Source of the DNA: T1SED10-198M sp003554345 [NCBI: Candidatus Sumerlaeota bacterium]
GTDB lineage: Bacteria > Sumerlaeota > T1SED10-198M
DNA length: 12,253 nucleotides
Direction: 5' to 3'
NCBI GenBank assembly: GCA_003554345.1
Contig: PWGE01000174.1
Coordinates: forward strand, 1 to 12,253
The notes under the pieces were generated by a model. It had not been told where the DNA came from. It made no database searches and was given only the letters and a program-made list of their open reading frames with translations. This document shows, one piece after another, positions 1 to 12,253 of this stretch. The position numbers and the translations under genes were made by a program. Positions within the stretch are counted from its first letter, which is position 1; the number at the start of each line of letters is the position of its first letter.

Positions 1-3000
1 AGGAATGATGTCTGGCGCTCAACAGATAATGGAGAAAACTGGTCGCGGATAACGACAAATGCCGCCTGGTCGGAACGAAGTACTCATTCTAGTGTTGTTT
101 TGCCTGACGGCAGTATTATCCTGACGGGTGGATTTGACGATGATGGGAACAGGTTGAACGATGTCTGGCGCTCAACAGATAATGGTGCTACCTGGACAAG
201 AATGACGGCTAACGCTCCCTGGGAGAAGCGAAATCATCACCAAACCGTGGTTTTACCTGATGGCAGTATTGTCCTGATGGGCGGTATTGGCGAATATTCC
301 GGAGATTTGAATGACGTCTGGCGCTCGACCGATAGGGGCGCTAGCTGGGTACAGATGACTTCCCATGCACCATGGGGAGTACGATTTAGAACTTCCAGTG
401 TGGCAACGCCGGATGGGAGCATTGTAGTTATGGGTGGAGGTATTAGTTACAGAAATGATGTGTGGCGTTCGACTGATAAAGGAAAGTCCTGGACGCGGGT
501 GACTGCCAATGCGGCATGGGTAAGTCGTAACGGACATGCTGCCGTGGTCGTGCCCAATGGTAATATTATTCTGATGGGTGGTTTTAACTATGGTGAGGGA
601 GGGAGAAAAAATGACGTATGGCGCCTGATAACCGCCGGTTCAAACTTGCAAAACCGGCTGCATACCTACCAGGAACCCGGGACATACGATGTCACTTTAC
701 AGTCCTTTAATTCACACGGCTCCAGCCGCATCAAAAAAGAAAATTATATCACCGTAGAACCGCCTCCTCCAACTGCCGATTTTATCGGGGAACCAACGAC
801 CGGTCCGGTTCCGCTGACAGTTGATTTTACCGACCTGTCAGGTTTTCCCTCGGGCTGGTCCTGGTATTTCGGCGATGAAGATTTTTCAGGTTCCTGGAGC
901 CAGAGGACGGCAAGCGCCTCCTGGGGAGCAAGGACCGGTCACAGCAGTGCCTCCCTGCGTGACGGAAGTATTGTTCTCATGGGTGGATCTGAATTAACCG
1001 GAAACAGGAATGATGTCTGGCACTCGACAAATAATGGAGCCACCTGGACGCAGCTAACTGCAAATGCCGGCTGGAGCGCCCGCGAAGGTCATACCAGTGT
1101 AGCGTTGCCCGACGGCGGCATCGTTGTCATGGGCGGCAGGGACAGCAGTGAGAATCTCCTGAGCGATGTCTGGCACTCGGAAGATAAAGGGGCGACCTGG
1201 ACGAGGATGACGGCAAATGCCGGCTGGTCGGCTCGCATGAGTCACAGCAGTGTGGCTATGCAGGACGGGAGTATTATTCTTATGGGTGGTTTGGATCTCA
1301 ATGACCAATTTAAAAATGATGTGTGGCGTTCGACAGATAAAGGTACTAACTGGACAAGAATGACCGCCAATGCCGGCTGGTCGGGACGATGGAATCATGC
1401 CGGGGTGGCTTTGCCCGACGGCAGTATTGCGATTATGGGCGGCTGGGATGGCAGTTCCAGGTTGAACGATGTCTGGCGTTCCACAAACAATGGAGTGAGC
1501 TGGAGCAGGAGGACTGGCGATGCCGCCTGGACCGGGAGATCAGGGCTGGAAGGCGCGGCACTCCCTGATAACAGTATGGTTATCATGGGGGGGTTCGATG
1601 GAGCTAATAAAAACGATGTCTGGCGCTCTACGGATAACGGTATAAACTGGACCCGGCTAACCGCCCATGCCGACTGGGGCGGACGCAGCAGGTTCGGCAG
1701 TGCGGTGCTCCGGGACGGGAGTATCGTCATCATGGGCGGTTTTACTGGTACGGCAAGGCTTAATAACGTATGGCGGTTGTTTACCGCCGATTCGAATGTT
1801 CAAGATCCTTCGTACACGTACAACGAACCGGGGACTTACCAGGTATCTCTCCAGGTATTCAATAATTTCGGATACTCCAGTATGCAGAAGTTTGATTATA
1901 TCACGGTTACTGTAACGCCTCCTTTAGCCGATTTCTCTGGTAGTCCGGTGTCCGGCATCGAACCGCTGCAGGTTCAGTTCACCGATCAGTCTACAGGCTA
2001 TCCCGAAGGGTGGGTCTGGTATTTTGGCGATGAGAATTATGACGGGAACTGGACGCAGATGACCGTGGGCGCCGGTTGGTCGGCACGGCACAGCCACAGC
2101 AGCGTGGTGCTTCCGGACGGGGATATTGTTCTTCTCGGTGGTTGGGACTTTACCCGTAAAAATGATATATGGCTTTCAAAAAATAAAGGGGCGGCATGGA
2201 CACAGGTATCGACTACCGGGGTTATGTGGTCGGGAAGAAGTGGGCTGAACAGTGTAGCGCTTCCCGACGGCAGTATTGTGGTCATGGGTGGCTATGATGG
2301 TTCATCATGGCTGAATGATGTCTGGCGTTCGACGGATAAAGGCGCTACCTGGACGAGAATGACGGCAAATGCCGGCTGGTCGGGACGAAACGGTCACAGC
2401 AGCGTTGTGCTGCCGGATGGCAGTATCGTTCTGATGGGCGGTTATGACGGCAGTTCAAGGGTGAATGATGTTTGGCGCTCCACGGATAAAGGCGCTACCT
2501 GGACAAGAATGACCGCAAATGCCGGCTGGTCCGGGCGTTTTGGTCATAGCAGTGTAGCCCTGCCGAATGGTAACATTGTTGTGATGGGCGGTTATGACGG
2601 AAACGAAAAAAATGATGTGTGGCTCTCGACAAATAATGGCGCATCCTGGATGCGCTATTTAACAATGGGAGGAATATGGAGCGCGAGAAGATTTCATTCC
2701 ACGGTGGTTCAGCCTGACGGGAGCATTATACTTATGGGTGGTCTTGATGGCACTTCAAGAAGTAATGATATATGGCGTTCGACAAATAATGGTCTATCCT
2801 GGGTGCAAGTTAATGCCGGCGCCCAATGGACGGGGCGGGACAATCACAGCAGTGTCGTCTTGCCGGATGGAAGTATTGTCCTCATGGGGGGTTTTGACGG
2901 CAGTTTCAAAAATGATGTCTGGCGGTTGATTACAAGTTCCTCTACAGAACAGCATCCTGTATATACTTATACTGTGCCCGGCACTTATACGATAGCCCTT

Positions 3001-3453
3001 CAGGTGTATAATGAAAAAGGCTGGAGCAGCGTTCGCAAAACAGACTATATCACTGTTGAAGAGCTGGTTCTTCCGGATTATGATTCTGAGGTCGTGGACT
3101 GGGATTTGCCTGACCGTTTACCGGTCAACCAGGCATATACCATGACCCTGACCCTTTGCAATACCGGTCTTTCTACGTGGGAATCTTCGGAAAACGTATT
3201 TCTGGGAGCAGTGGGAGACCACGATTACCTGGTGCCTTCTGATAACTGGAATGTCTCCCTGGAATATGAGGTCGGTCATCTTGAAACATATACCTTTGAA
3301 GTTGAATTATTGCCGGAACAGGTGGGAGCCTTTAGTACTGAATGGCAAATGTTTAAAACAGGGGAAGGCTGGTTCGGCGAGATCTTCAGCCGGGAAGTGG
3401 AAGTCCATCCAAGAACGGCTATTGAAAGTGCGCTCTGGCACCTGTTTGAATGA
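1..3453 (+). CDS. Kelch propeller / PKD repeat protein, 5' end outside window
   Basis: The reading frame is open from base 1, so the true start lies upstream; the first in-frame start-like codon, TTG at 100, falls inside a repeat. The protein is built of ~50-residue units carrying a kelch-type signature (H-S-S-V-V-L-P-D-G-S-I-V-L-M-G-G, then N-D-V-W) and an Asp-box-like S-T-D-x-G-A-T-W. Units group as at least five (nt 1-640), six (883-1785) and six (2035-2940). PKD halves separate the groups: W-Y-F-G-D-E at 862-879 and 2017-2034, and Y-x-x-P-G-T-Y segments near 661, 1810 and 2965. Each propeller therefore sits inside a PKD domain, after its FGD motif. The C-terminus (3064-3450) resembles an Ig-like NBR1 'FW'-type domain (N-T-G-x-x-T-W, W-Q-M, W-F-G-E). 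No membrane anchor is visible. Such proteins are usually extracellular and bind carbohydrate or protein; the ligand is unknown. It ends with TGA at 3451. Confidence 0.9.
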   Translation, partial: RNDVWRSTDNGENWSRITTNAAWSERSTHSSVVLPDGSIILTGGFDDDGNRLNDVWRSTDNGATWTRMTANAPWEKRNHHQTVVLPDGSIVLMGGIGEYSGDLNDVWRSTDRGASWVQMTSHAPWGVRFRTSSVATPDGSIVVMGGGISYRNDVWRSTDKGKSWTRVTANAAWVSRNGHAAVVVPNGNIILMGGFNYGEGGRKNDVWRLITAGSNLQNRLHTYQEPGTYDVTLQSFNSHGSSRIKKENYITVEPPPPTADFIGEPTTGPVPLTVDFTDLSGFPSGWSWYFGDEDFSGSWSQRTASASWGARTGHSSASLRDGSIVLMGGSELTGNRNDVWHSTNNGATWTQLTANAGWSAREGHTSVALPDGGIVVMGGRDSSENLLSDVWHSEDKGATWTRMTANAGWSARMSHSSVAMQDGSIILMGGLDLNDQFKNDVWRSTDKGTNWTRMTANAGWSGRWNHAGVALPDGSIAIMGGWDGSSRLNDVWRSTNNGVSWSRRTGDAAWTGRSGLEGAALPDNSMVIMGGFDGANKNDVWRSTDNGINWTRLTAHADWGGRSRFGSAVLRDGSIVIMGGFTGTARLNNVWRLFTADSNVQDPSYTYNEPGTYQVSLQVFNNFGYSSMQKFDYITVTVTPPLADFSGSPVSGIEPLQVQFTDQSTGYPEGWVWYFGDENYDGNWTQMTVGAGWSARHSHSSVVLPDGDIVLLGGWDFTRKNDIWLSKNKGAAWTQVSTTGVMWSGRSGLNSVALPDGSIVVMGGYDGSSWLNDVWRSTDKGATWTRMTANAGWSGRNGHSSVVLPDGSIVLMGGYDGSSRVNDVWRSTDKGATWTRMTANAGWSGRFGHSSVALPNGNIVVMGGYDGNEKNDVWLSTNNGASWMRYLTMGGIWSARRFHSTVVQPDGSIILMGGLDGTSRSNDIWRSTNNGLSWVQVNAGAQWTGRDNHSSVVLPDGSIVLMGGFDGSFKNDVWRLITSSSTEQHPVYTYTVPGTYTIALQVYNEKGWSSVRKTDYITVEELVLPDYDSEVVDWDLPDRLPVNQAYTMTLTLCNTGLSTWESSENVFLGAVGDHDYLVPSDNWNVSLEYEVGHLETYTFEVELLPEQVGAFSTEWQMFKTGEGWFGEIFSREVEVHPRTAIESALWHLFE
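2335..2631 (+). repeat. Near-identical 150-bp tandem units inside the kelch gene
   Basis: Two consecutive propeller-blade units start with the same bases, GATAAAGGCGCTACCTGGAC, at 2335 and 2485, exactly 150 bp (50 codons) apart. They stay nearly identical through the following MTANAGWSGR and HSSV segments. Other blades in the gene are clearly more diverged at DNA level, so this pair looks like a recent duplication or gene conversion. Confidence 0.75.
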
Positions 3454-3980: not shown

Positions 3981-5205
3981 CTATAATTCTGCCTCGGCTA
4001 ATTTCGAAAAAAAATCAGCCATTTCCAGTAGTCTGCTGATATCAAGAAGTTCCAGGGTATCCTGGTCGGTATGAATAATGGTGGAGAGCAGTTCCTGCGC
4101 CCTGCTGGAAGTACAGGCAATGGTCGGTACCTGGTGCATGGCAAAGAGCATGTGGTCTCCCTGGTACCAGGGTTCGGTTTCTTCAAGGTCAGGATACCCC
4201 GATGCCAGACTGCGAATCTTTTGCTGCCGGCGGTCTGAAACACTGAAACAGGAGAAGGTGTCTTTTCCCTCCTTATAACCGATTCCGTCGCAATTTACCG
4301 CCAGCTTTACAGAAGCAAACATATGCAGGTATTTCTCCAGGTAGATGGTTTCCCCGGGGGCGGAATAATAATCCTCTCCGTTGAAAAGCACGATTTCGAT
4401 ACCGTTTTTTATGGAACGACCGGTGAGAATATCACTCAATGCCAGTAAACAGGCAACTCCGCCTGCGTTGTCCAGAGCACCGGGGGTACCCTGGGTGCAG
4501 TATCAATATGAACGCTGAAAAGAAGTTTTTTATCTGCTTCTGGTTCAGGCAGGCGATAACATTAGCGGCACGTGAAGGTTTTCGCTGAGAAGTTATGATG
4601 AGGTGACCCTTTTTCCCTGTTGATTCGAACAGTAAAGTCTGATCAGGTTCTGTAATAATACCGCAGGGGATATCAAAATCTCCGTCTGTAATGATAGGTA
4701 CCGGCGTTCCTTCTTGAAAAGCGTACGTCAGTATTGCTGCAGGCTTTTTCTCTTCGAGAAGATGAATTATCTGCTGATGCTCTTCAGGATTATAGAACGC
4801 GAAGTTTTTTGGCATGAGGGGCTCAGAGACCAGAGAACCGTACAACAGGGCAATACGCCCCTGCAGCTGAGCTATCTTTAATTCCTGTAAAGAGCCTATG
4901 GTACAAACGTCTGCTTTTACATCACAAGGTAAGGTATAATCAGAAGGACGAACGGAAATTTCTTTTCCGCTGATATGCAATGAGGCTTTTCCTGGTGACC
5001 AGTCCATACAATCAAAAGACTGCAGTTCGACGGTAAAGCCATTGTTCTTTAAAATCTTTTCGATATAGGAGACTGCTTTCTGATTGCCTGTCGAGCCGAC
5101 CGGCCTCGGTCCAATATCTTCGCATAATATTTGCAACCTCTCCTGGAAATATAACCCTTTTGAGACGCAAAATATGGCGTCTCTACTCTTTTGACTCCTT
5201 TTCAT
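3981..5205 (-). pseudogene. M28-family zinc aminopeptidase, broken by two frameshifts
   Basis: The N-terminal part has the M28-like start L-C-E-D-I-G-P-R-P-V-G-S followed by a PA-like insert and A-N-V-I-A. The frame then breaks twice. Near 4537-4548 it must move to continue as A-D-K-K-L-L-F-S-V-H-I-D-T. Near 4488-4497 it must move again to give G-T-P-G-A-L-D-N-A-G-G. Each break is repaired by one extra base, for example one more C on the coding strand. Joined, all co-catalytic metal-site residues are present: H of HIDT, D of LDN, E-D of FNGEDYY, D of NCDG and H of HTDQD. The product would be a ~400-residue metallopeptidase; no signal peptide is obvious. The start at 5205 (ATG, AAAGGA six bases upstream) lies 52 bases after the predicted transcription start. 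The frame stays open to an ATG at 5256, and a TTG at 5136 is also possible. Either a true pseudogene or assembly error at homopolymers. Confidence 0.85.
5162..5183. repeat. GAGACGC/GCGTCTC palindrome inside the peptidase 5' end
   Basis: GAGACGC (5162-5168) and GCGTCTC (5177-5183) form a 7-bp stem with an 8-base loop. Palindromes built on GAGACGC/GCGTCTC are familiar as intergenic repeats in several uncultured bacterial lineages (from memory). The adjacent bases 5135-5160 resemble 11973-11998 and 5403-5426, both of which are intergenic. The first ~20 codons of the peptidase frame therefore probably read through repeat DNA. Confidence 0.55.
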
Positions 5206-5263
5206 CCTGGATCCTTTTCTTTTTCTGCAATGGTTGTCTCTTACCTGAAAATACACTCTTTAA

Positions 5264-5415: not shown

Positions 5416-5745
5416 ATAGAACCCTAAAAAAGATGTATTACATCTATAATACGGGAATGAAGTCAAGATAAGACCATAGAGACTAAGAAACCAGAAAATT
5501 TGCATCGATGGACAGGATATGCAGGATATCAAAAGAAAGATAATCTCATCAGATCCGGAAAAGAGATGTAACATGATGAAGAGGATGAAACAGGATAAGA
5601 ACATAAAGACTAAGAATACAGAAAATTTGCATCGATGTGCAGGATGAACAGGATATCAAAAAAAAGGTAATTATACTTCACATCCTGATAAGATATTTTT
5701 ACAGGGTTGAAAGGATAACACAGGGGATAGGGAGGATACCACAGA
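5403..5745. repeat. Dispersed AGGAT-rich intergenic repeat, copy A
   Basis: The block begins AACTCC...GATAGAACCCT, runs through ATACGGG, and contains two tandem sub-units built on CAGAAAATTTGCATCGATG (5489 and 5619). Each is followed by closely spaced AGGAT pentamers. It aligns by eye with 11973-12253 over most of its length and with 6547-6720 in its second half. The right edge is diffuse, because AGGAT-type motifs continue to about 5740. Open frames here on either strand have repeat-like composition and are not convincing genes. Confidence 0.75.
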
Positions 5746-5996: not shown

Positions 5997-6497
5997 ATGA
6001 TGAGCCGGATGTCAAAGAAGAAGCAGGTGATAGGACTCCTGGCGTGGCTTGGAGTCACCTTTCTTGCCGCAGGCATAGGAAGTGCTGCCTCAGTAAATGC
6101 CGGCCCGTTTTACATGGAATTGACTCGTCCGGAGTGGGCTCCTCCGCCGTCTGTCTTCGGTCCTGTCTGGTCGGTGCTTTATGTACTTATAGGTGTGGCT
6201 GCATGGCTGGTATGGCGTACCGGCGGATTTTTTATGGCACGTAAAGCCCTTATTCTATTTTTCATTCAACTTCTTCTCAATGCTCTCTGGACGTGGCTCT
6301 TTTTTGGTTGGAATATGGGAGCGGCGGCTTTTGTTGAAATAGTATTGCTGTGGGGTTTCATCGTAGCAACGCTTATTGCTTTCTGGCGCGTCAATAGGCT
6401 GGCAGGTGTTTTGTTCATTCCTTACCTGCTGTGGGTGAGCTTTGCCGTTATGCTGAGCTATACCGTCTGGCAGTTGAATCCGGAAATTCTGGGATAG
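5997..6497 (+). CDS. tspO: TspO/MBR family tryptophan-rich membrane protein
   Basis: A 166-residue protein with five predicted membrane helices (about 11-30, 52-73, 84-104, 107-129 and 135-158) and many Trp and aromatic residues, as expected for the TspO / peripheral benzodiazepine receptor family. Family motifs are visible: P-x-W-A-P-P-P-S-V-F-G-P-V-W-S-V-L-Y (residues 45-62), L-N-A-L-W-T-W-L-F-F-G (94-104) and S-Y-T-V-W-Q-L-N near the C-terminus. Members bind tetrapyrroles and other hydrophobic ligands and take part in stress or porphyrin-related regulation; the role here is unknown. Length is normal. Two ATGs are adjacent. AGGAGG (5988-5993) is 3 bases from the first and 6 from the second, so 6000 may be the real start. 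The gene stands alone between repeat blocks with its own promoter. Confidence 0.95.
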   Translation: MMSRMSKKKQVIGLLAWLGVTFLAAGIGSAASVNAGPFYMELTRPEWAPPPSVFGPVWSVLYVLIGVAAWLVWRTGGFFMARKALILFFIQLLLNALWTWLFFGWNMGAAAFVEIVLLWGFIVATLIAFWRVNRLAGVLFIPYLLWVSFAVMLSYTVWQLNPEILG

Positions 6498-6530: not shown

Positions 6531-6722
6531 GTGAGTAAGTCGGTGGACAGGAAATCAAAAGAAAAATGATCTCATCAAATCCGGGAAAGAGATGTAACAA
6601 GGATTTAGAGGATGAAACCGGATAAGAACAAAAAGATGAAGAATACAGAAAAATTTGCATCGATGGACAGGATAGTCAGGATAGGGAAAGAAAGACAAAA
6701 AAACCCCGGAAGAAGAATGTAT
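6531..6722. repeat. Dispersed AGGAT-rich intergenic repeat, copy B
   Basis: From about 6547 to 6720 this block aligns by eye with 12080-12253. Differences are few in the right half, which includes TGCATCGATGGACAGGATAG and ACCCCGGAAGAA. Compared with copies A and C it lacks the left part that contains the GAACCCT and ATACGGG motifs. An open frame over 6612-6881 is a by-product of the repeat, not a supported gene. Confidence 0.8.
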
Positions 6723-7065: not shown

Positions 7066-7093
7066 ATTATTCGTTAATATATTAACGAATAAT
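7066..7093. promoter_or_regulatory. Perfect 28-bp palindrome, probable operator
   Basis: The left half ATTATTCGTTAATA is followed directly by its exact reverse complement, with no spacer and no mismatch. It ends one base before the GGAGG ribosome binding site (7094-7098) of the first operon gene. Perfect dyads of this size and A+T content next to a start are typical targets of dimeric helix-turn-helix repressors such as ArsR- or MarR-type proteins. In RNA it could also form a hairpin that hides the ribosome binding site. No regulator gene lies in the window. Confidence 0.65.
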
Positions 7094-7103
7094 GGAGGTG
7101 AAT

Positions 7104-7355
7104 ATGAAGAAAACAGAACTGAAGATCTGTCTGGGAAGTGCATGTCACACGAAGGGAAGTTCCGAATTTGTGGAGATTATCCAGGACTGGTTGAAAAAGA
7201 ATGATCTTGAAGACAGGATTCGATTTACAGGTACGTTATGTCTTGGTAAATGTCGTGAAGGAATTAACGTATTGGTTGATGAGCAAATCTATTCGTCATT
7301 GAATAATAAGAATATTTACAGGTTTTTGACGGAATTGCTGCAGAAAGGAGAATGA
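7104..7355 (+). CDS. NuoE-like thioredoxin-fold [2Fe-2S] protein 1
   Basis: An 83-residue protein with four cysteines spaced as in thioredoxin-like [2Fe-2S] ferredoxins: C9-x4-C14 and C46-x3-C50. It is about half the length of a full NuoE/HydC subunit and consists of the cluster-binding fold only. Its likely role is electron transfer to or from the adjacent hydrogenase. The start at 7104 is chosen over an in-frame ATG at 7092 for two reasons. GGAGG at 7094-7098 sits 5 bases before 7104, and M-K-K-T-E-L-K-I-C-L-G then aligns with the start of the second [2Fe-2S] protein at 10252. The ATG at 7092 overlaps the palindrome. This is the first gene of the operon; only 4 bases separate it from the next. 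Confidence 0.88.
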   Translation: MKKTELKICLGSACHTKGSSEFVEIIQDWLKKNDLEDRIRFTGTLCLGKCREGINVLVDEQIYSSLNNKNIYRFLTELLQKGE

Positions 7356-7359
7356 ATGT

Positions 7360-9069
7360 ATGACTGCTGTTTCGAAAGGTATTATCTATACTGATAAGGC
7401 AAATTGCCAGGATTGCTATAAGTGTGTCAGGAATTGTCCGGTGAAATCTATCACTATTAAAGATGGACAGGCTATGGTTGAACAGGAAGAATGCGTTCTA
7501 TGTGGCACATGTATTGATATCTGTCCCACCCATTCAAAAAAATACCGCTTGGATCTGCAGCTTTTTGAGAAAATGCTTGAAGAAAAAGATAAGCCGGTAT
7601 ATATCTCTCTTGCTCCCAGTTTTCCGGTTTATTTTCAAAATTGTACCACTTCGCAGCTCATACAGGCTCTTCATTCTATTGGTGTTCAAGGGGTCTCTGA
7701 AACGGCTCTTGGCGCGGAGATTGCTTCTTACTATACCAGAAAGTATTTTGATTCGTATCCCGGGGGAGTTCTTATTTCTTCTGCATGTCCTTCTGTGGGG
7801 ATTTTCCTGCAAAAGTACTATCCTCAAATATATGAGAAGTACTACTCTGAAATGCCGTCTCCTCTGGGATATCATGCTACTTATTTGCGCAAATTGTTTG
7901 GCAAGTCCATCCGTGTTGTATTTGTAGGACCCTGTATTGCTAAAAAATATGAAGCGGATACCTTTTCGGATATCGATCTTGCCCTTACATTCAAAGAGCT
8001 GGACGAATTCCTGGCAAATAAAGATGTTAAGCCTGAAAAATTTAACAATGAAGGTGAATACTGTACAGAAGAAGCAGAAAATGCCAGAACTTTTCCTGTT
8101 CCCGGAGGAATGATAAAAACGGTTCACCCTGACGCTCCTCTTCTGGGTACCCGGACTTTTGCCTTTGATGGCATGAATGAACTCAAGTTGTTCTTTGACC
8201 AGTTTAAAGGCACCTATGAAAACCTCTTTCTTGAAGTGCTGGCCTGTGAGAACGGGTGTATTAATGGACCGATAATGCGACATATCAGTAATCCCGCTTT
8301 TAACCGGCTGAATTTTATTCAACAGCTTGAGATATCAGAACAACCTGAGGAAAAAAAATATAATCTTCCCCTCAAGGTTGAGAGGAAGGGGAAAGGTTTG
8401 AAAAAGTCCTTGCCAGGAGAGAAACAAATTGAAGATATCCTTGAAGCAATGGGCAAATATACGGAAGAGGATATGTTGAATTGTAACGCCTGCGGTTATT
8501 TTACCTGTCGTGATATGGCGATCGCTATTTACCAGGAAAAGGCTGAAATTAATATGTGTGTTTCCTATATGCGTAAACTGGCAGAAAATAAGGCTTCAGC
8601 CCTTCTCAAGGCTGATCCCAACGGTATTGTCATACTTAATGAGCGGCTTGAAATAATCTCGTATAATCCTTCTTTTGCCGCAATGTTCCAGATTTCTGAA
8701 ACAATGAAACCGAAAAAAATGCAGGAGCTTATGCCTGATGACGATTTTTTCGAGGTGTTAACAAAGAACAGGAATATTACCAATAAAACATATCATTTCC
8801 CTGAAAATGACCTTACCGTTAAAGTTTCTATTTTCCCCATAGAAAATTACCGTCTCATTGGAGCAATTTTTAATGATATCAGTGAGGAGATTCAAAGTAA
8901 ACAGGAAGTAGAAAATCTCAGTGAAATTACCATTGCCAATGCCCATAAGGTTATGAATAACCAGATGAAATCGGCACAGCAAATTGCCAAAATGCTGGGC
9001 GATGTGACGGCTGATACTAAAATTTTATTGCATGATATGATCAAACTGGCAGAAAAGTTTAAACAATGA
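7360..9069 (+). CDS. Sensory [FeFe]-hydrogenase with PAS domain (group C type)
   Basis: A 569-residue protein. It starts with two 4Fe-4S ferredoxin motifs (C16, C19, C22, C26 and C45, C48, C51, C55). The H-cluster domain follows, with motif 1 S-S-A-C-P (C143), motif 2 G-P-C-x3-K-K-x-E (C192) and motif 3 L-A-C-E-N-G-C (C296, C300). All four cysteines that hold the H-cluster are present, but the proton-relay cysteine of the usual TSCCP is alanine (A142). Next is an FeS domain of the C-x2-C-G-x3-C...C kind (C375, C378, C383, C400), then a PAS domain (about 411-510) and a helical tail. This order matches the putatively sensory group C hydrogenases. It likely senses H2 or redox state rather than producing H2. 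The ribosome binding site AAAGGAG is at 7344-7350. The gene overlaps the phosphatase start by 4 bases (ATGA), suggesting coupled translation. It resembles the PAS-containing member of the hfs cluster. Confidence 0.93.
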   Translation: MTAVSKGIIYTDKANCQDCYKCVRNCPVKSITIKDGQAMVEQEECVLCGTCIDICPTHSKKYRLDLQLFEKMLEEKDKPVYISLAPSFPVYFQNCTTSQLIQALHSIGVQGVSETALGAEIASYYTRKYFDSYPGGVLISSACPSVGIFLQKYYPQIYEKYYSEMPSPLGYHATYLRKLFGKSIRVVFVGPCIAKKYEADTFSDIDLALTFKELDEFLANKDVKPEKFNNEGEYCTEEAENARTFPVPGGMIKTVHPDAPLLGTRTFAFDGMNELKLFFDQFKGTYENLFLEVLACENGCINGPIMRHISNPAFNRLNFIQQLEISEQPEEKKYNLPLKVERKGKGLKKSLPGEKQIEDILEAMGKYTEEDMLNCNACGYFTCRDMAIAIYQEKAEINMCVSYMRKLAENKASALLKADPNGIVILNERLEIISYNPSFAAMFQISETMKPKKMQELMPDDDFFEVLTKNRNITNKTYHFPENDLTVKVSIFPIENYRLIGAIFNDISEEIQSKQEVENLSEITIANAHKVMNNQMKSAQQIAKMLGDVTADTKILLHDMIKLAEKFKQ

Positions 9070-10238
9070 GAATTTTAAACCAACGATTTCTTGTCGATTA
9101 CAACTATAGACAGCTCAACCATTACGGGGAAGAGCTTTGTGGTGATGTGATTGGAGTTCGCGAGGGAGAAAACTTTATGGTGTTTGTCCTGGCAGACGGT
9201 CTGGGAAGCGGGATCAGGGCAAACATACTGGCAAATTTGATGGTGGAAATCTCCGAACGTCTTACCACTGGAGGATTGACCATTCAGGAGGTTGTAGAGA
9301 CTGTGATGGAAACCCTGCCTGTTTGCCCAATCCGCAATATTGCGTATGCTACCTTTACCATTATTCAACTCTTTAACTCCGGTTTTGCCCGAATCTATGA
9401 ATTTGACAATCCCGAATATCTTCTTTTTCGGAATGGAACAATTCAGGAGGTTTCTAAAAAAGAGCTTGTGATCGGAAACTATCGTATTTTATATAGTGAA
9501 CAACGCCTTAATGTTCATGATAGCCTTTTTGTTTTCAGCGACGGTATTACTCATTCAGGTATGGGAAAAACCCTTCCCTTTGGTTTGCAGCGTGAAGAAG
9601 TGATGAAATTCCTGGGAAAGCAGTTTAATAGGAAAACCCACGAAAAGTATAAGGCTGGGCAGTTGACTGATAAACTCATCCAACACTGTTTAAACCTTGA
9701 TCTGGGCGAACCTGGTGATGACACCTCTGTTCTGGGAATTATGGTGCGCGAAACTCATAAAGCTGTTATTTTTACAGGTCCTCCTAAGGATAAGGCTCTC
9801 GATAAAAAAGCTTTTGATCTTTTCTGGAATCAGCCGGGAGAAAAAATTGTTTGTGGTGGTACTACTTCCTTGATTGTTAGCCGAATGCTCAAAAAGAGTG
9901 TCAAAGTACAGCTGGATTCCTTTGAAAAGGATATTCCAGCTATGGCTTCTATTCCCGGTATTGACCTGGCTACTGAAGGTGTGATTACCATGTCCAGGGT
10001 GTGTGAAATGCTGGAGGGAAAGCCTGTTCAATATGAAAAAGCTAATGGGGCAGTTAAATTATATCAGCACCTGGTAAAAGCTGATGAGGTGAACATCATA
10101 GCCGGTACTGCCATCAATGAAGCCTACCAGAATCCTGAACTTCCTCAGATGCTTTCTCTGCGAAAGAATCTGGTTGATAAACTGGTCGATATTTTACAAC
10201 ATAGATGGAATAAAACAGTCCATCTCACTTATTTTTAA
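9066..10238 (+). CDS. SpoIIE/PP2C-type serine phosphatase with extra C-terminal domain
   Basis: A 390-residue protein. The first ~230 residues carry the PP2C/SpoIIE metal-site signatures: G-D (D27), A-D-G-L-G-S-G (D44), F-S-D-G-I (D159) and G-D-D-T-S (D218, D219). It should remove phosphate from Ser/Thr residues of a partner, often an anti-anti-sigma-like protein in this family; the target is unknown. Residues ~231-390 form a separate region with T-G-P-P-K-D, C-G-G-T-T-S, G-I-D-L-A-T-E-G and a helical end. I associate this tail with phosphatases beside sensory hydrogenases, but know no function for it. No membrane segment is seen. It is translationally coupled to the upstream PAS-hydrogenase, which supports a sensor-output pair. 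The pairing matches what I recall of the phosphatase-linked subgroup (C3) of [FeFe]-hydrogenases. Confidence 0.92.
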   Translation: MRILNQRFLVDYNYRQLNHYGEELCGDVIGVREGENFMVFVLADGLGSGIRANILANLMVEISERLTTGGLTIQEVVETVMETLPVCPIRNIAYATFTIIQLFNSGFARIYEFDNPEYLLFRNGTIQEVSKKELVIGNYRILYSEQRLNVHDSLFVFSDGITHSGMGKTLPFGLQREEVMKFLGKQFNRKTHEKYKAGQLTDKLIQHCLNLDLGEPGDDTSVLGIMVRETHKAVIFTGPPKDKALDKKAFDLFWNQPGEKIVCGGTTSLIVSRMLKKSVKVQLDSFEKDIPAMASIPGIDLATEGVITMSRVCEMLEGKPVQYEKANGAVKLYQHLVKADEVNIIAGTAINEAYQNPELPQMLSLRKNLVDKLVDILQHRWNKTVHLTYF

Positions 10239-10251
10239 AGGAGCGTGAGAT

Positions 10252-10500
10252 ATGAAAAAAACACAGATACGTATTTGTCTGGGAACCAAATGTTACCTTT
10301 TCGGAGCTGGTGACCTGGTAGAGACATTCCAGAATCTACCTGAAGAGATTCAAAGCCGGTATGAGTTAGTCACTGTTTCCTGTTTTACGAAATGTGAAAG
10401 TCCGGAGGCAAAGACACCCATTATTCAAATCGGGGAGGCATTTTATTATGGTGTCCAGCCGGAGAAGCTTTTAGAGATCCTGAAAAAACACGATAACTAA
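10252..10500 (+). CDS. NuoE-like thioredoxin-fold [2Fe-2S] protein 2
   Basis: An 82-residue paralogue of the first operon gene, with C9-x4-C14 and C44-x3-C48 for one [2Fe-2S] cluster. Both begin M-K-K-T and share I-C-L-G around the first cysteine, but they differ elsewhere (for example S-P-E-A-K-T-P between the last cysteine and the end strand). They are therefore old paralogues rather than a recent copy. It probably serves as electron carrier for the hydrogenase encoded just downstream. AAAGGAG (10237-10243) lies 8 bases before the ATG and overlaps the phosphatase stop codon. Confidence 0.9.
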   Translation: MKKTQIRICLGTKCYLFGAGDLVETFQNLPEEIQSRYELVTVSCFTKCESPEAKTPIIQIGEAFYYGVQPEKLLEILKKHDN

Positions 10501-10516
10501 AGGAGAATCAATACAA

Positions 10517-11947
10517 ATGCTGATAAAAAGCGGAGTAACTATTTTACGAAGAAATATATTTACAATACTTGCGGAAATGGCATTTGAAGACAGGCTGATA
10601 GAAGACATTGAAAAAATCCCTCGAATGATTGTTCCGGATGATTCCAAATCTTTTCGTTGTTGTATTCATAAAGACCGGGCTATTATAGGAGAGCGGATAA
10701 AAAACATGCTGGGGTTTATTTCTGAAGAATATACTTCGAAAGACCTACGGCAACTGGCGAGACTTGCTATTGAAGAGCCAGTAGAAGACATGGGATTCTG
10801 GTTAAAGGCCATTAAAACGGCTTGTGATTCCTGTCCTACCCATAAATATTATATTACCGAGGGATGCCGTAATTGCGTGGCTCATTTATGTCAGCATAAT
10901 TGTCCCAGAGATGCGATTCAAATAGTTAATAACCGCGCTATGATCAATGAGGAGCTCTGTGTGGAATGCGGGAAATGTGCTGTTGTATGTCCTTTCCATG
11001 CGATTATAGAGTTAAAAAGACCCTGTGAGTATGCTTGCCCGGTAAATGCCATCAAAGTCAGTGAAGATAAAAAAGTTCATCTTGATGAGGAAAGTTGTAT
11101 ATTATGCGGTAAATGTATTGTGGGATGCCCATTTGGTGCTATTGAAGAAAAGTCCCAAATAGTCCAGGTTATTCAGGAAATTAAACAAAACACGCCTGTG
11201 TATGCCCTTATTGCTCCTTCCATTATCGGGCAGTATTCCGTTATGGCAGATTTTCAGAAAATAAACGGAGCCCTGGAGGCGTTAGGTTTTGCAGGTGTTT
11301 TTGATGTTGCAGAAGGTGCTGATGAAACAGTCCTCCATGAAACTACAGAATTTATTGAAAGGAGTCAATCAGATCCTCTTATGACAACTTCATGCTGTCC
11401 ATCTTTCAAACTTTGCCTGGAAAAAATCTATCCTGATCTTTCTGATTATATATCGGATACGGTCTCTCCCATGGTTTTTGCTGCTCGAAAAGCAAAACAG
11501 CAATATCCACACGCTAAAACGGTGTTTATAGGTCCATGCCTGAGCAAAAAACATGAAGCGACGCTATATGATGAAGTTGATTATGTGTTAACATTCGAAG
11601 AACTGGCTGCCATGTTTGTTGCTCAGAAAATTGATGTGCTATCGGTGTCGGGAAAACCATTTGAATCTCAGGCTTCTGATCATGCCAGGCTGTTTGCGCA
11701 GTCGGGTGGGGTGGCCCAGAATATTCAGGAAAAGCTTGCAGAGAAGGATCATGATAACAGCCGACTGCAGCCGGTTTTTATAAATGGAATTGATAAAGAT
11801 GGGCTCAAAACTCTCAAGGCTGCATCTTTTGGTAAGTGTGACGGGAACTTTATGGAAGGAATGGCCTGTACATCAGGATGCATAGGAGGACCGCACATCC
11901 TTACCGCTCCCAGGGTTACCCGAAAATTACTGGATAAATACCGCTAG
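10517..11947 (+). CDS. [FeFe]-hydrogenase with multiple Fe-S clusters (group B type)
   Basis: A 476-residue protein. The N-terminal ~110 residues are cysteine-poor apart from C48-C49 and C103-x2-C106. A cluster-rich region follows: C117, C120, C125, C129; C148, C151, C154, C158; a half motif C170-x3-C174-P; and C194, C197, C200, C204. The H-cluster domain has T-S-C-C-P-S-F (C293, C294), G-P-C-L-S-K-K-H-E (C341) and E-G-M-A-C-T-S-G-C-I-G-G-P (C451, C455). All H-cluster ligands and the proton-relay cysteine are intact, so it is likely catalytic (H2 evolution or oxidation with ferredoxin). This layout fits the group B monomeric hydrogenases often found beside sensory group C genes. The maturases HydE, HydF and HydG are not in the window. 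AGGAG at 10501-10505 precedes the ATG by 11 bases. It is the last gene of the operon. Confidence 0.93.
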   Translation: MLIKSGVTILRRNIFTILAEMAFEDRLIEDIEKIPRMIVPDDSKSFRCCIHKDRAIIGERIKNMLGFISEEYTSKDLRQLARLAIEEPVEDMGFWLKAIKTACDSCPTHKYYITEGCRNCVAHLCQHNCPRDAIQIVNNRAMINEELCVECGKCAVVCPFHAIIELKRPCEYACPVNAIKVSEDKKVHLDEESCILCGKCIVGCPFGAIEEKSQIVQVIQEIKQNTPVYALIAPSIIGQYSVMADFQKINGALEALGFAGVFDVAEGADETVLHETTEFIERSQSDPLMTTSCCPSFKLCLEKIYPDLSDYISDTVSPMVFAARKAKQQYPHAKTVFIGPCLSKKHEATLYDEVDYVLTFEELAAMFVAQKIDVLSVSGKPFESQASDHARLFAQSGGVAQNIQEKLAEKDHDNSRLQPVFINGIDKDGLKTLKAASFGKCDGNFMEGMACTSGCIGGPHILTAPRVTRKLLDKYR

Positions 11948-11972: not shown

Positions 11973-12253
11973 AACCTCCCTGGAAATAGAACCCTTGAAA
12001 AATGTTTTAGATCAATGATACGGGGATGAAACCAGGATAAGTTCGGAAAGAATAAGAAACCAGAAAATTTGCATCGATGGACAGGATATCAGAAAAAATA
12101 ACCTCATCAGATCCAGAAAAAGAAATGTAACAAGGATTTACAGGGTGAAACAGGATAAGAACAAAAAGATGAAGAATACAGAAAAATATGCATCGATGGA
12201 CAGGATAGTCAGGATAGGGAAATAAAGACAAAAAAAACCCCGGAAGAATAATG
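11973..12253. repeat. Dispersed AGGAT-rich intergenic repeat, copy C, runs off the window
   Basis: It begins 25 bases after the last operon gene with AACCTCCCTGGAAATAGAAC, followed by GATACGGGG. It has two CAGAAAAT(T/A)TGCATCGATGG sub-units at about 12060 and 12179, each followed by AGGAT motifs. The left part matches copy A, and 12080-12253 matches copy B closely. The window ends inside the block. No terminator hairpin is evident between 11948 and 11972. Confidence 0.8.

What the first reader, a model, noticed from the sequence alone, without database searches (positions are those of the whole stretch)
7104..11947. Complete sensor-phosphatase-hydrogenase operon
Two [2Fe-2S]-protein/hydrogenase pairs enclose a PP2C phosphatase. 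Short spacers and a 4-base overlap imply one transcript. The group C protein has sensor features and the group B protein keeps catalytic features. This implies a circuit in which H2 or redox state alters protein phosphorylation, but its target is unknown. Related hfs clusters affect fermentation end products.
Basis: partly seen in the sequence, partly recalled or inferred. Interest (0 to 1): 0.6.

Follow-up and report, generated by a model that had tools for sequence, protein, structure and literature searches.

The report
Hydrogenase sensor coupled to a phosphatase
A bacterial operon that joins a probable hydrogen-sensing enzyme to a protein phosphatase and to a hydrogen-handling enzyme; operons of this kind are already known in fermenting bacteria, and the new part is a short conserved tail that may be where sensor and phosphatase meet.

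Summary
7104-11947 holds five packed same-strand genes: [2Fe-2S] protein, PAS-bearing group C-type [FeFe] hydrogenase (HydS/HfsB type), SpoIIE-type PP2C phosphatase (ATGA overlap, no ribosome site of its own), second [2Fe-2S] protein, group B [FeFe] hydrogenase. The arrangement is known: Thermoanaerobacterium hfsABCD, the Ruminococcus albus HydS cluster, HydDB group C3 'phosphatase-linked (putative)'. The circuit is the published hypothesis; I found no biochemistry of the phosphatase.

Added here: (1) in 391 genomes of one class, 110 of 112 tail-bearing sensor matches lie directly before a phosphatase match; (2) a ~44-residue tail after the PAS domain, searched alone, marks 111 of those genomes, 110 of them among the 112 with the phosphatase, and it diverges together with the phosphatase more than the PAS or hydrogenase domains do; (3) in two genomes of the window's phylum a 168-169-residue PAS-plus-tail protein without hydrogenase domain precedes the phosphatase, so the tail follows the phosphatase; (4) a perfect 28-bp palindrome with a Rex-type core precedes the operon, but no Rex was found in this incomplete genome. 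New member of a known kind, with an extra [2Fe-2S] gene not seen in this place in 69 related loci. The phosphatase target remains unknown.

The parts
7066..7093 (.). Perfect 28-bp palindrome (14-nt arms, no loop), core GTTAA-N4-TTAAC as in clostridial Rex operators; candidate operator
   Evidence: best arm 14 against a maximum of 10 in 300 mononucleotide shuffles of the 250 nt upstream; core once in window, expected 0.01; consensus TTGTTAANNNNTTAACAA quoted in PMC8457756
7104..7355 (+). A: thioredoxin-like [2Fe-2S] protein, 83 aa (HfsA position)
7360..9069 (+). B: group C-type [FeFe] hydrogenase with PAS and tail, 569 aa (HydS/HfsB type)
8482..8559 (+). Cx2Cx4Cx16C motif of B (residues 375-400), fourth cluster between H-domain and PAS
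   Evidence: 65 of 65 full-length relatives including the window; PF04060 373-401
8617..8886 (+). PAS domain of B (residues 420-509)
   Evidence: 25.1 bits, cut-off 27
8917..9048 (+). Conserved C-terminal tail of B (about residues 520-563), proposed phosphatase contact
9066..9069 (+). ATGA overlap of B stop and C start; no ribosome site for C
9066..10238 (+). C: SpoIIE-type PP2C phosphatase, 390 aa (HfsC position)
9741..10235 (+). C-terminal part of C (residues 226-390), conserved, no Pfam family; carries the CGGT stretch with C263 invariant in 42 of 42
10252..10500 (+). A': second thioredoxin-like [2Fe-2S] protein, 82 aa, between C and D
   Evidence: not seen between C and D in 69 loci
10517..11947 (+). 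D: group B [FeFe] hydrogenase, 476 aa (HfsD/HydA2 position)

Best explanation
This is a phosphatase-linked [FeFe]-hydrogenase sensor operon of the hfs kind. B lets its H-cluster equilibrate with H2/H+ and the ferredoxin pool, perhaps with A as electron partner; the state passes by the Cx2Cx4Cx16C cluster to the PAS domain and through the conserved tail to phosphatase C, which is made from the same mRNA by coupled translation. C then removes phosphate from a serine/threonine protein. D, with A' as possible partner, does the bulk H2 chemistry. Shown here: genes, motifs, gene overlap, co-occurrence and co-divergence of B's tail with C. Inferred from genetics published for a relative: A and B restrain C, and C acts upstream of D or of ethanol genes. 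Guessed: the direction of the H2 effect and the target, for which a STAS-type protein is the default by the habit of SpoIIE phosphatases (recalled).
For: Layout and missing ribosome site of C. Sensor signature of B: Ala, Gly and Leu at the C299, M353 and M497 positions, H-cluster cysteines kept, Cx2Cx4Cx16C present. Catalytic signature of D: C299, E279, E282, R286, S319 and M497 equivalents kept against CpI (CpI positions checked). Linkage: 110 of 112 tail-bearing B matches directly before C, 111 of 117 C matches directly after B; genomes 109 both, 0 tail-bearing B only, 3 C only of 391. Tail profile alone: 114 places in 111 of 391 genomes, the weakest at E 3.9e-10. Co-divergence with the window over 66 pairs: C against tail rho 0.43, against PAS 0.21, against H-domain 0.14. 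R. albus 7 has the same gene kinds beside rex and adhE, 33-38% identical. PMC5707799 (passages): loss of hfsA or hfsB gives high ethanol, and loss of hfsB raises hydrogenase activity, while loss of hfsC, hfsD or all four does not give high ethanol.
Against: No biochemistry of HfsC was found (searches; most subscription papers are not held). hfsA deletion in T. saccharolyticum lowered hfsB, C and D expression two- to six-fold, so the hfsA result may be polar. Target unknown: of 69 loci one has an RsbW-like kinase near C, and in G000 the one RsbW-like match over the cut-off and one STAS protein sit beside another SpoIIE phosphatase. Three of 69 C loci have no B next to them. 40 of 65 full-length B proteins have Cys at the C299 position, so many relatives may be ordinary catalysts. 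The strict tail motif is missing in 10 of 66 B relatives, 6 of which go with the six most divergent phosphatases. Structure models were too poor to judge contacts. The window's PAS score is just under Pfam's cut-off.
Confidence: 0.72

Rival explanations
1. B is not a sensor but a slow or structural hydrogenase subunit: A, B, A' and D form one ferredoxin-linked hydrogenase, and C regulates that complex by dephosphorylating it.
For: Two [2Fe-2S]/hydrogenase pairs in one operon. 40 of 65 full-length B proteins keep Cys at the C299 position. PMC13277313 (passage) suggests HfsABC might work as a hydrogenase without HfsD.
Against: D directly follows C in only 24 of 69 loci. Window B has lost C299, M353 and M497. 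PAS-plus-tail proteins without hydrogenase domain precede C in L020 and L021. hfsB deletion raised hydrogenase activity (PMC5707799).
Confidence: 0.17
2. C's proximate job is partner switching: it dephosphorylates a STAS anti-anti-sigma factor and so frees a sigma factor for fermentation genes.
For: SpoIIE-type fold by profile: best PDB matches are a serine phosphatase, SpoIIE and RsbX. G000 has five STAS matches and an RsbW-like kinase. In L068 an RsbW-like protein follows C.
Against: One of 69 loci only. G000's RsbW-like kinase sits with its own SpoIIE phosphatase and STAS gene on C27. STAS genes were not searched for in the 69 loci by profile; the recurring gene families there, of which I scanned seven, include no STAS family.
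Confidence: 0.3
3. C is directed at a protein phosphorylated by the APH/RIO-like kinase encoded beside adhE in some clusters, so kinase and phosphatase set one switch on ethanol or hydrogenase enzymes.
For: APH-type kinase gene near C in 11 of 69 loci, including R. albus 7; PMC5707799 reports that Zheng et al. proposed signalling to an adjacent Ser/Thr kinase.
Against: Absent near C in 58 of 69 loci and in the window; not searched for in G000.
Confidence: 0.12

Closest known systems
hfsABCD of Thermoanaerobacterium saccharolyticum (PMC5707799, PMC11837493, PMC12288451, PMC5886521; passages read)
   Same: HfsA, PAS hydrogenase HfsB, serine phosphatase HfsC, ferredoxin-linked hydrogenase HfsD in this order; predicted Rex site TTGTTAATAAATTAACTA 78 nt upstream (PMC5886521 Table 5)
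   Different: The window has a second [2Fe-2S] gene between phosphatase and last hydrogenase and a different flank around the palindrome core; the Tsac proteins were not in hand, so no direct comparison was made
Ruminococcus albus 7 HydS / phosphatase / HydA2 cluster on pRUMAL01 (L017; PMC6776011 passages)
   Same: B 33%, C 38% and D 37% identical over nearly full length; sensor and phosphatase genes overlap
   Different: Both [2Fe-2S] genes lie before the sensor; rex, adhE and an APH-type kinase gene lie upstream. PMC6776011 calls the partner hydrogenase group A1, whereas window D passes the group B1 model; I did not scan the R. albus protein
HydDB group C3 [FeFe] hydrogenase (PMC5037454 passages)
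   Same: PAS-type sensory hydrogenase with a serine/threonine phosphatase gene beside it
   Different: Membership of the SSN cluster could not be run here
Thermotoga maritima HydS and Thermoanaerobacter mathranii HydS (groups C and D; PMC10055695, PMC8163306, PMC13104023 passages)
   Same: Altered H-cluster surroundings and Cx2Cx4Cx16C motif
   Different: Phosphatase coupling is not mentioned in the passages read; TamHydS has no PAS domain

Membership tests
Group C (M2f) sensory [FeFe] hydrogenase | H-cluster cysteines kept; C299, M353 and M497 (CpI) replaced | tested here: met
   Window B: A142, G190, L294; C143, C192, C296, C300 kept. Other proton-pathway residues of B not tested one by one
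Group C (M2f) sensory [FeFe] hydrogenase | C-terminal Cx2Cx4Cx16C motif | tested here: met
   C375, C378, C383, C400
Group C (M2f) sensory [FeFe] hydrogenase | PAS domain after that motif | tested here: met
   PF13426 at 420-509, E 2.2e-5, but 25.1 bits against a cut-off of 27; the PAS of L020 passes it with 33.0
HydDB group C3 (phosphatase-linked) | Encoded with a serine/threonine phosphatase | tested here: met
   C overlaps B; SpoIIE 49.7 bits
HydDB group C3 (phosphatase-linked) | Falls in the C3 cluster of the similarity network | not testable with these tools
   No HydDB reference set in hand
Group B [FeFe] hydrogenase | Over the curated cut-off of TIGR04105 | tested here: met
   Window D 536.8 bits against 450
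SpoIIE/PP2C phosphatase | SpoIIE domain with metal-binding aspartates | tested here: met
   PF07228 49.7 bits; D27, D44, D159, D218, D219 invariant in 42 relatives; their role as metal ligands is recalled
Stage II sporulation protein E proper | Over the cut-off of TIGR02865 | tested here: not met
   26.7 bits against 490.8
hfsABCD operon | HfsA-B-C-D gene kinds in this order | tested here: met
   an extra [2Fe-2S] gene stands between C and D
Rex-regulated operon | Rex operator TTGTTAANNNNTTAACAA and a Rex protein in the cell | tested here: inconclusive
   Core matches, next base C/G instead of T/A; no PF06971 match in G000, 87.66% complete

The most novel reading that the evidence does not exclude
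The PAS domain with its ~44-residue tail is a portable phosphatase adaptor: the tail docks on this SpoIIE-type phosphatase, and different sensing heads are plugged onto it, a hydrogenase in most genomes seen and no hydrogenase in L020 and L021, where a [2Fe-2S] protein may be the input. The hydrogenase is then one of several redox inputs to one conserved phosphatase pathway.
Probability: 0.45. Interest if true: 0.55.

Novelty: new member of a known kind. Interest (0 to 1): 0.36.

Why it matters
Whether PAS-bearing [FeFe] hydrogenases sense H2 in the cell, and how they pass the signal on, is still called putative in the reviews read here, while hfsB mutations are already used to raise ethanol yield without a known mechanism. 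A near-exclusive tail and natural hydrogenase-free variants point to a small, testable contact between sensor and phosphatase.

Tried and rejected
Rejected: chance neighbours. Not taken as regulon evidence: the only other CGTTAAN4TTAACG site in G000 (C108), where I saw no clearly related gene among the listed ORFs. Dropped: the 'hydA 66 of 69' row, because B itself passes that score window; for the trimeric hydrogenase I use the NuoE and NuoF clusters (21 of 69 loci each). Not run: fold searches, because both models are poor (mean pLDDT 52.1 and 46.3; three sequences per alignment). Not found: Rfam matches in the window; a named family or solved relative for the C-terminal part of C (a phosphoheptose isomerase match at E 0.3 over profile positions 232-294 was not pursued). 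The organism was not identified; its class holds only itself among the genomes searched.

Weak points of the counts. The 69 loci are 2 from the search for related loci, 3 from the plasmid collection, 4 of the window's phylum and 60 picked by me (59 of the 117 matches, one); not a random sample. By gene order L018/L093 and L095/L096 look like near-duplicates. Genomes are related, so the Fisher value and the p-values are not probabilities of independence. One search scored at most 3 candidates per genome and its list was cut; I used 113 of its listed rows and left out those whose match stops before the tail (fragments, the ~880-aa and ~430-680-aa frames, G360 ending at residue 520). One search covered the tail without that limit and added two places: G405, directly before C, and G098, at a contig edge in a genome without a C match. 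Profile A4 contains tails from genomes it was then searched against. The shuffles are first-order Markov resamplings.
Full report
What is there. Five same-strand genes fill 7104-11947. A (83 aa) and A' (82 aa) are thioredoxin-like [2Fe-2S] proteins with four cysteines each. B (569 aa) runs: 4Fe-4S motifs, H-cluster domain, FeS domain, PAS, tail. C (390 aa) is a SpoIIE-type PP2C phosphatase. D (476 aa) passes the curated cut-off of TIGR04105, the group B1 model, which B does not. Gaps are 4, -4, 13 and 16 nt. C starts in B's stop codon (ATGA) and has no ribosome site, unlike the other four genes, so its translation is probably coupled to that of B.

Sensor and catalyst. Passages of PMC8163306 and PMC10055695 say what sets sensory enzymes apart: C299, M353 and M497 (CpI numbering) are altered, and a Cx2Cx4Cx16C motif stands at the C-terminal side of the H-domain, before the PAS domain in group C. 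Window B has Ala, Gly and Leu at the three positions, keeps the four H-cluster cysteines and has the motif. Window D, aligned with CpI (positions checked), keeps the equivalents of C299, E279, E282, R286, S319 and M497 and has Gly for M353. So the split into sensor-like and catalyst-like holds for this window. A caution: of 65 full-length B proteins (the window included) 40 have Cys at the C299 position, so that loss does not mark the whole set.

How tight is the pair? In 391 genomes of the class of a Lachnospiraceae MAG (presumably Clostridia), C matches 112 genomes at 117 places. Of 112 B matches that reach the tail, 110 lie directly before C; the two others are the first of a tandem pair (G081) and one about 15 kb away on the same contig (G137). 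Of 117 C matches 111 lie directly after B; the six others are G137, G162, a weak match inside a 766-aa frame (G257), a second match in G289, and the second halves of genes split over contigs or the contig origin in G386 and G083. By genome: 109 with both, none with tail-bearing B only, 3 with C only. In 69 fetched loci B precedes C in 66, two of these being the short forms below; the exceptions are L019 (Acetoanaerobium noterae), L068 and L097.

The tail. Across 67 B proteins the best-kept stretch after the FeS domain is not the PAS core but the C-terminal segment kQm...qeIA.LLGEt.AeTK..L..L. A profile of 14 such tails (A4) finds 114 places in 111 of 391 genomes at E 1e-4 or better, the weakest at 3.9e-10. 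These are the 112 B matches plus G405 and G098; 110 of the 111 genomes also have a C match. Of the hydrogenases listed whose match stops before the tail, for example the ~880-residue frames, the only one with a tail hit is G098 (765-residue frame at a contig edge). Over 66 B-C pairs, identity of C to the window's C goes with identity of the tail (Spearman 0.43) more than with that of the PAS (0.21) or the H-domain (0.14), and the six most divergent phosphatases (L022, L023, L105-L108; 23-27% identical) all lack the strict tail motif, which 56 of 66 have. This fits a contact between tail and C, but shared ancestry could give the same.

Hydrogenase-free versions. In the window's phylum 6 of 40 genomes, the window's included, have a C relative. 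In G031 (L020) the order is [2Fe-2S] protein, a 169-residue protein with PAS (PF13426 33.0 bits, cut-off 27) plus tail, then C. In G034 (L021) a 168-residue PAS-plus-tail protein precedes C. Neither short protein has a hydrogenase domain. The tail is thus tied to the phosphatase and not to the hydrogenase. In G029 and G030 (L022, L023) full-length B and C follow rex, NuoE, NuoF and a HydA-like gene. The partial match in G039 was not followed up.

Surroundings. In the 69 loci D directly follows C in 24, an [2Fe-2S] gene precedes B in 48, adhE occurs within the fetched stretch in 14, rex in 10 and an APH-type kinase in 11; NuoE and NuoF of a trimeric hydrogenase in 21 each. None of the 69 has an [2Fe-2S] gene between C and D as the window has. 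B-C is the constant pair and the partner hydrogenase changes. In L068 an RsbW-like ATPase (HATPase_c_2 40.7 bits) and a hydrogenase-like protein without PAS lie beside C, the one hint of partner switching in the loci.

Operator. A perfect 28-bp palindrome, 7066-7093, ends 10 nt before A's start codon. Its core GTTAA-N4-TTAAC is that of the clostridial Rex site quoted in PMC8457756. The same core starts 15-93 nt before the first gene of the cluster in 6 of 69 loci, against a mean of 0.07 (maximum 2) in 500 resamplings, and PMC5886521 Table 5 predicts a Rex site before hfsABCD. Against: the window's site has C/G where the consensus has T/A; no Rex DNA-binding domain was found in G000, which is 87.66% complete; 63 of 69 loci lack the core. 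I call it a Rex-like operator whose regulator is not identified.

Mechanism. In T. saccharolyticum loss of hfsA or hfsB raises ethanol and loss of hfsB raises hydrogenase activity, while loss of hfsC, hfsD or all four does not give high ethanol; the hfsA deletion was polar (PMC5707799, passages). PMC12288451 says the hfsB mutation is thought to deregulate hfsD. With the present data the simplest order is: A and B restrain C, and freed C pushes the cell towards D-dependent H2 chemistry and ethanol. In R. albus an eight-gene cluster with the sensor, adhE and a hydrogenase fell 111-fold in co-culture, which the authors tie to H2 level (PMC6776011). The target stays open. G000 has five STAS matches and one RsbW-like kinase over the cut-off; the kinase and one STAS gene stand beside another SpoIIE phosphatase on C27.

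Novelty. The system is known: hfsABCD, the R. albus cluster, HydDB group C3. What I did not meet in the papers read in passages or the searches listed is the near-exclusive tail, its co-occurrence with the phosphatase in numbers, and the hydrogenase-free PAS-tail versions. The library lacks most subscription papers; Zheng et al. 2014 and a further paper asked for by id were not held.

Noticed in passing
L020:7334-8143 and L021:7660-8166: PAS-plus-tail proteins of 168-169 residues without hydrogenase domain directly before the phosphatase gene, in two genomes of the window's phylum.
   Followed up: partly
L068:4884-9161: Phosphatase gene followed by an RsbW-like HATPase_c_2 protein, a hydrogenase-like protein without PAS and a PHP-like protein (PHP by eye, not scanned).
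   Followed up: partly
L098:6451-7971 and nine other loci: A ~506-residue protein family; the member scanned had no Pfam match. It directly follows the phosphatase gene in nine of the ten loci that carry it.
   Followed up: no
window 5429-5647, 6548-6707, 11998-12240: Intergenic repeat family rich in CAGGAT/ACAGGA (stretches of 52-122 nt, 61-94% alike to their reference copies) on both sides of the operon.
   Followed up: partly
window 3981-5256, minus strand: A peptidase-like gene (M28-like by eye, not scanned) lies in two overlapping frames: frameshift or assembly error.
   Followed up: no
window 1-3453: 1150-residue open frame cut by the contig end, with many Kelch-like repeats and PKD-like segments (by eye).
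   Followed up: no
window 5997-6497: TspO-like tryptophan-rich sensory protein (NF047825 114.7 bits, under its cut-off of 180).
   Followed up: no
L026:527-2825 (G000 contig C27): Separate SpoIIE phosphatase, STAS and RsbW-like gene trio, with a kinase-like frame (by eye) after it.
   Followed up: partly
L001 (G000:C101:6538-7410): Third [FeFe] hydrogenase gene of this genome (PF02906 322 bits), not examined further.
   Followed up: no
G060:C60, G343:C22, G274:C108 and others: Hydrogenase domains alike to B inside ~880-residue open frames, matched only up to B residue ~405-433; what is fused behind was not looked at.
   Followed up: no
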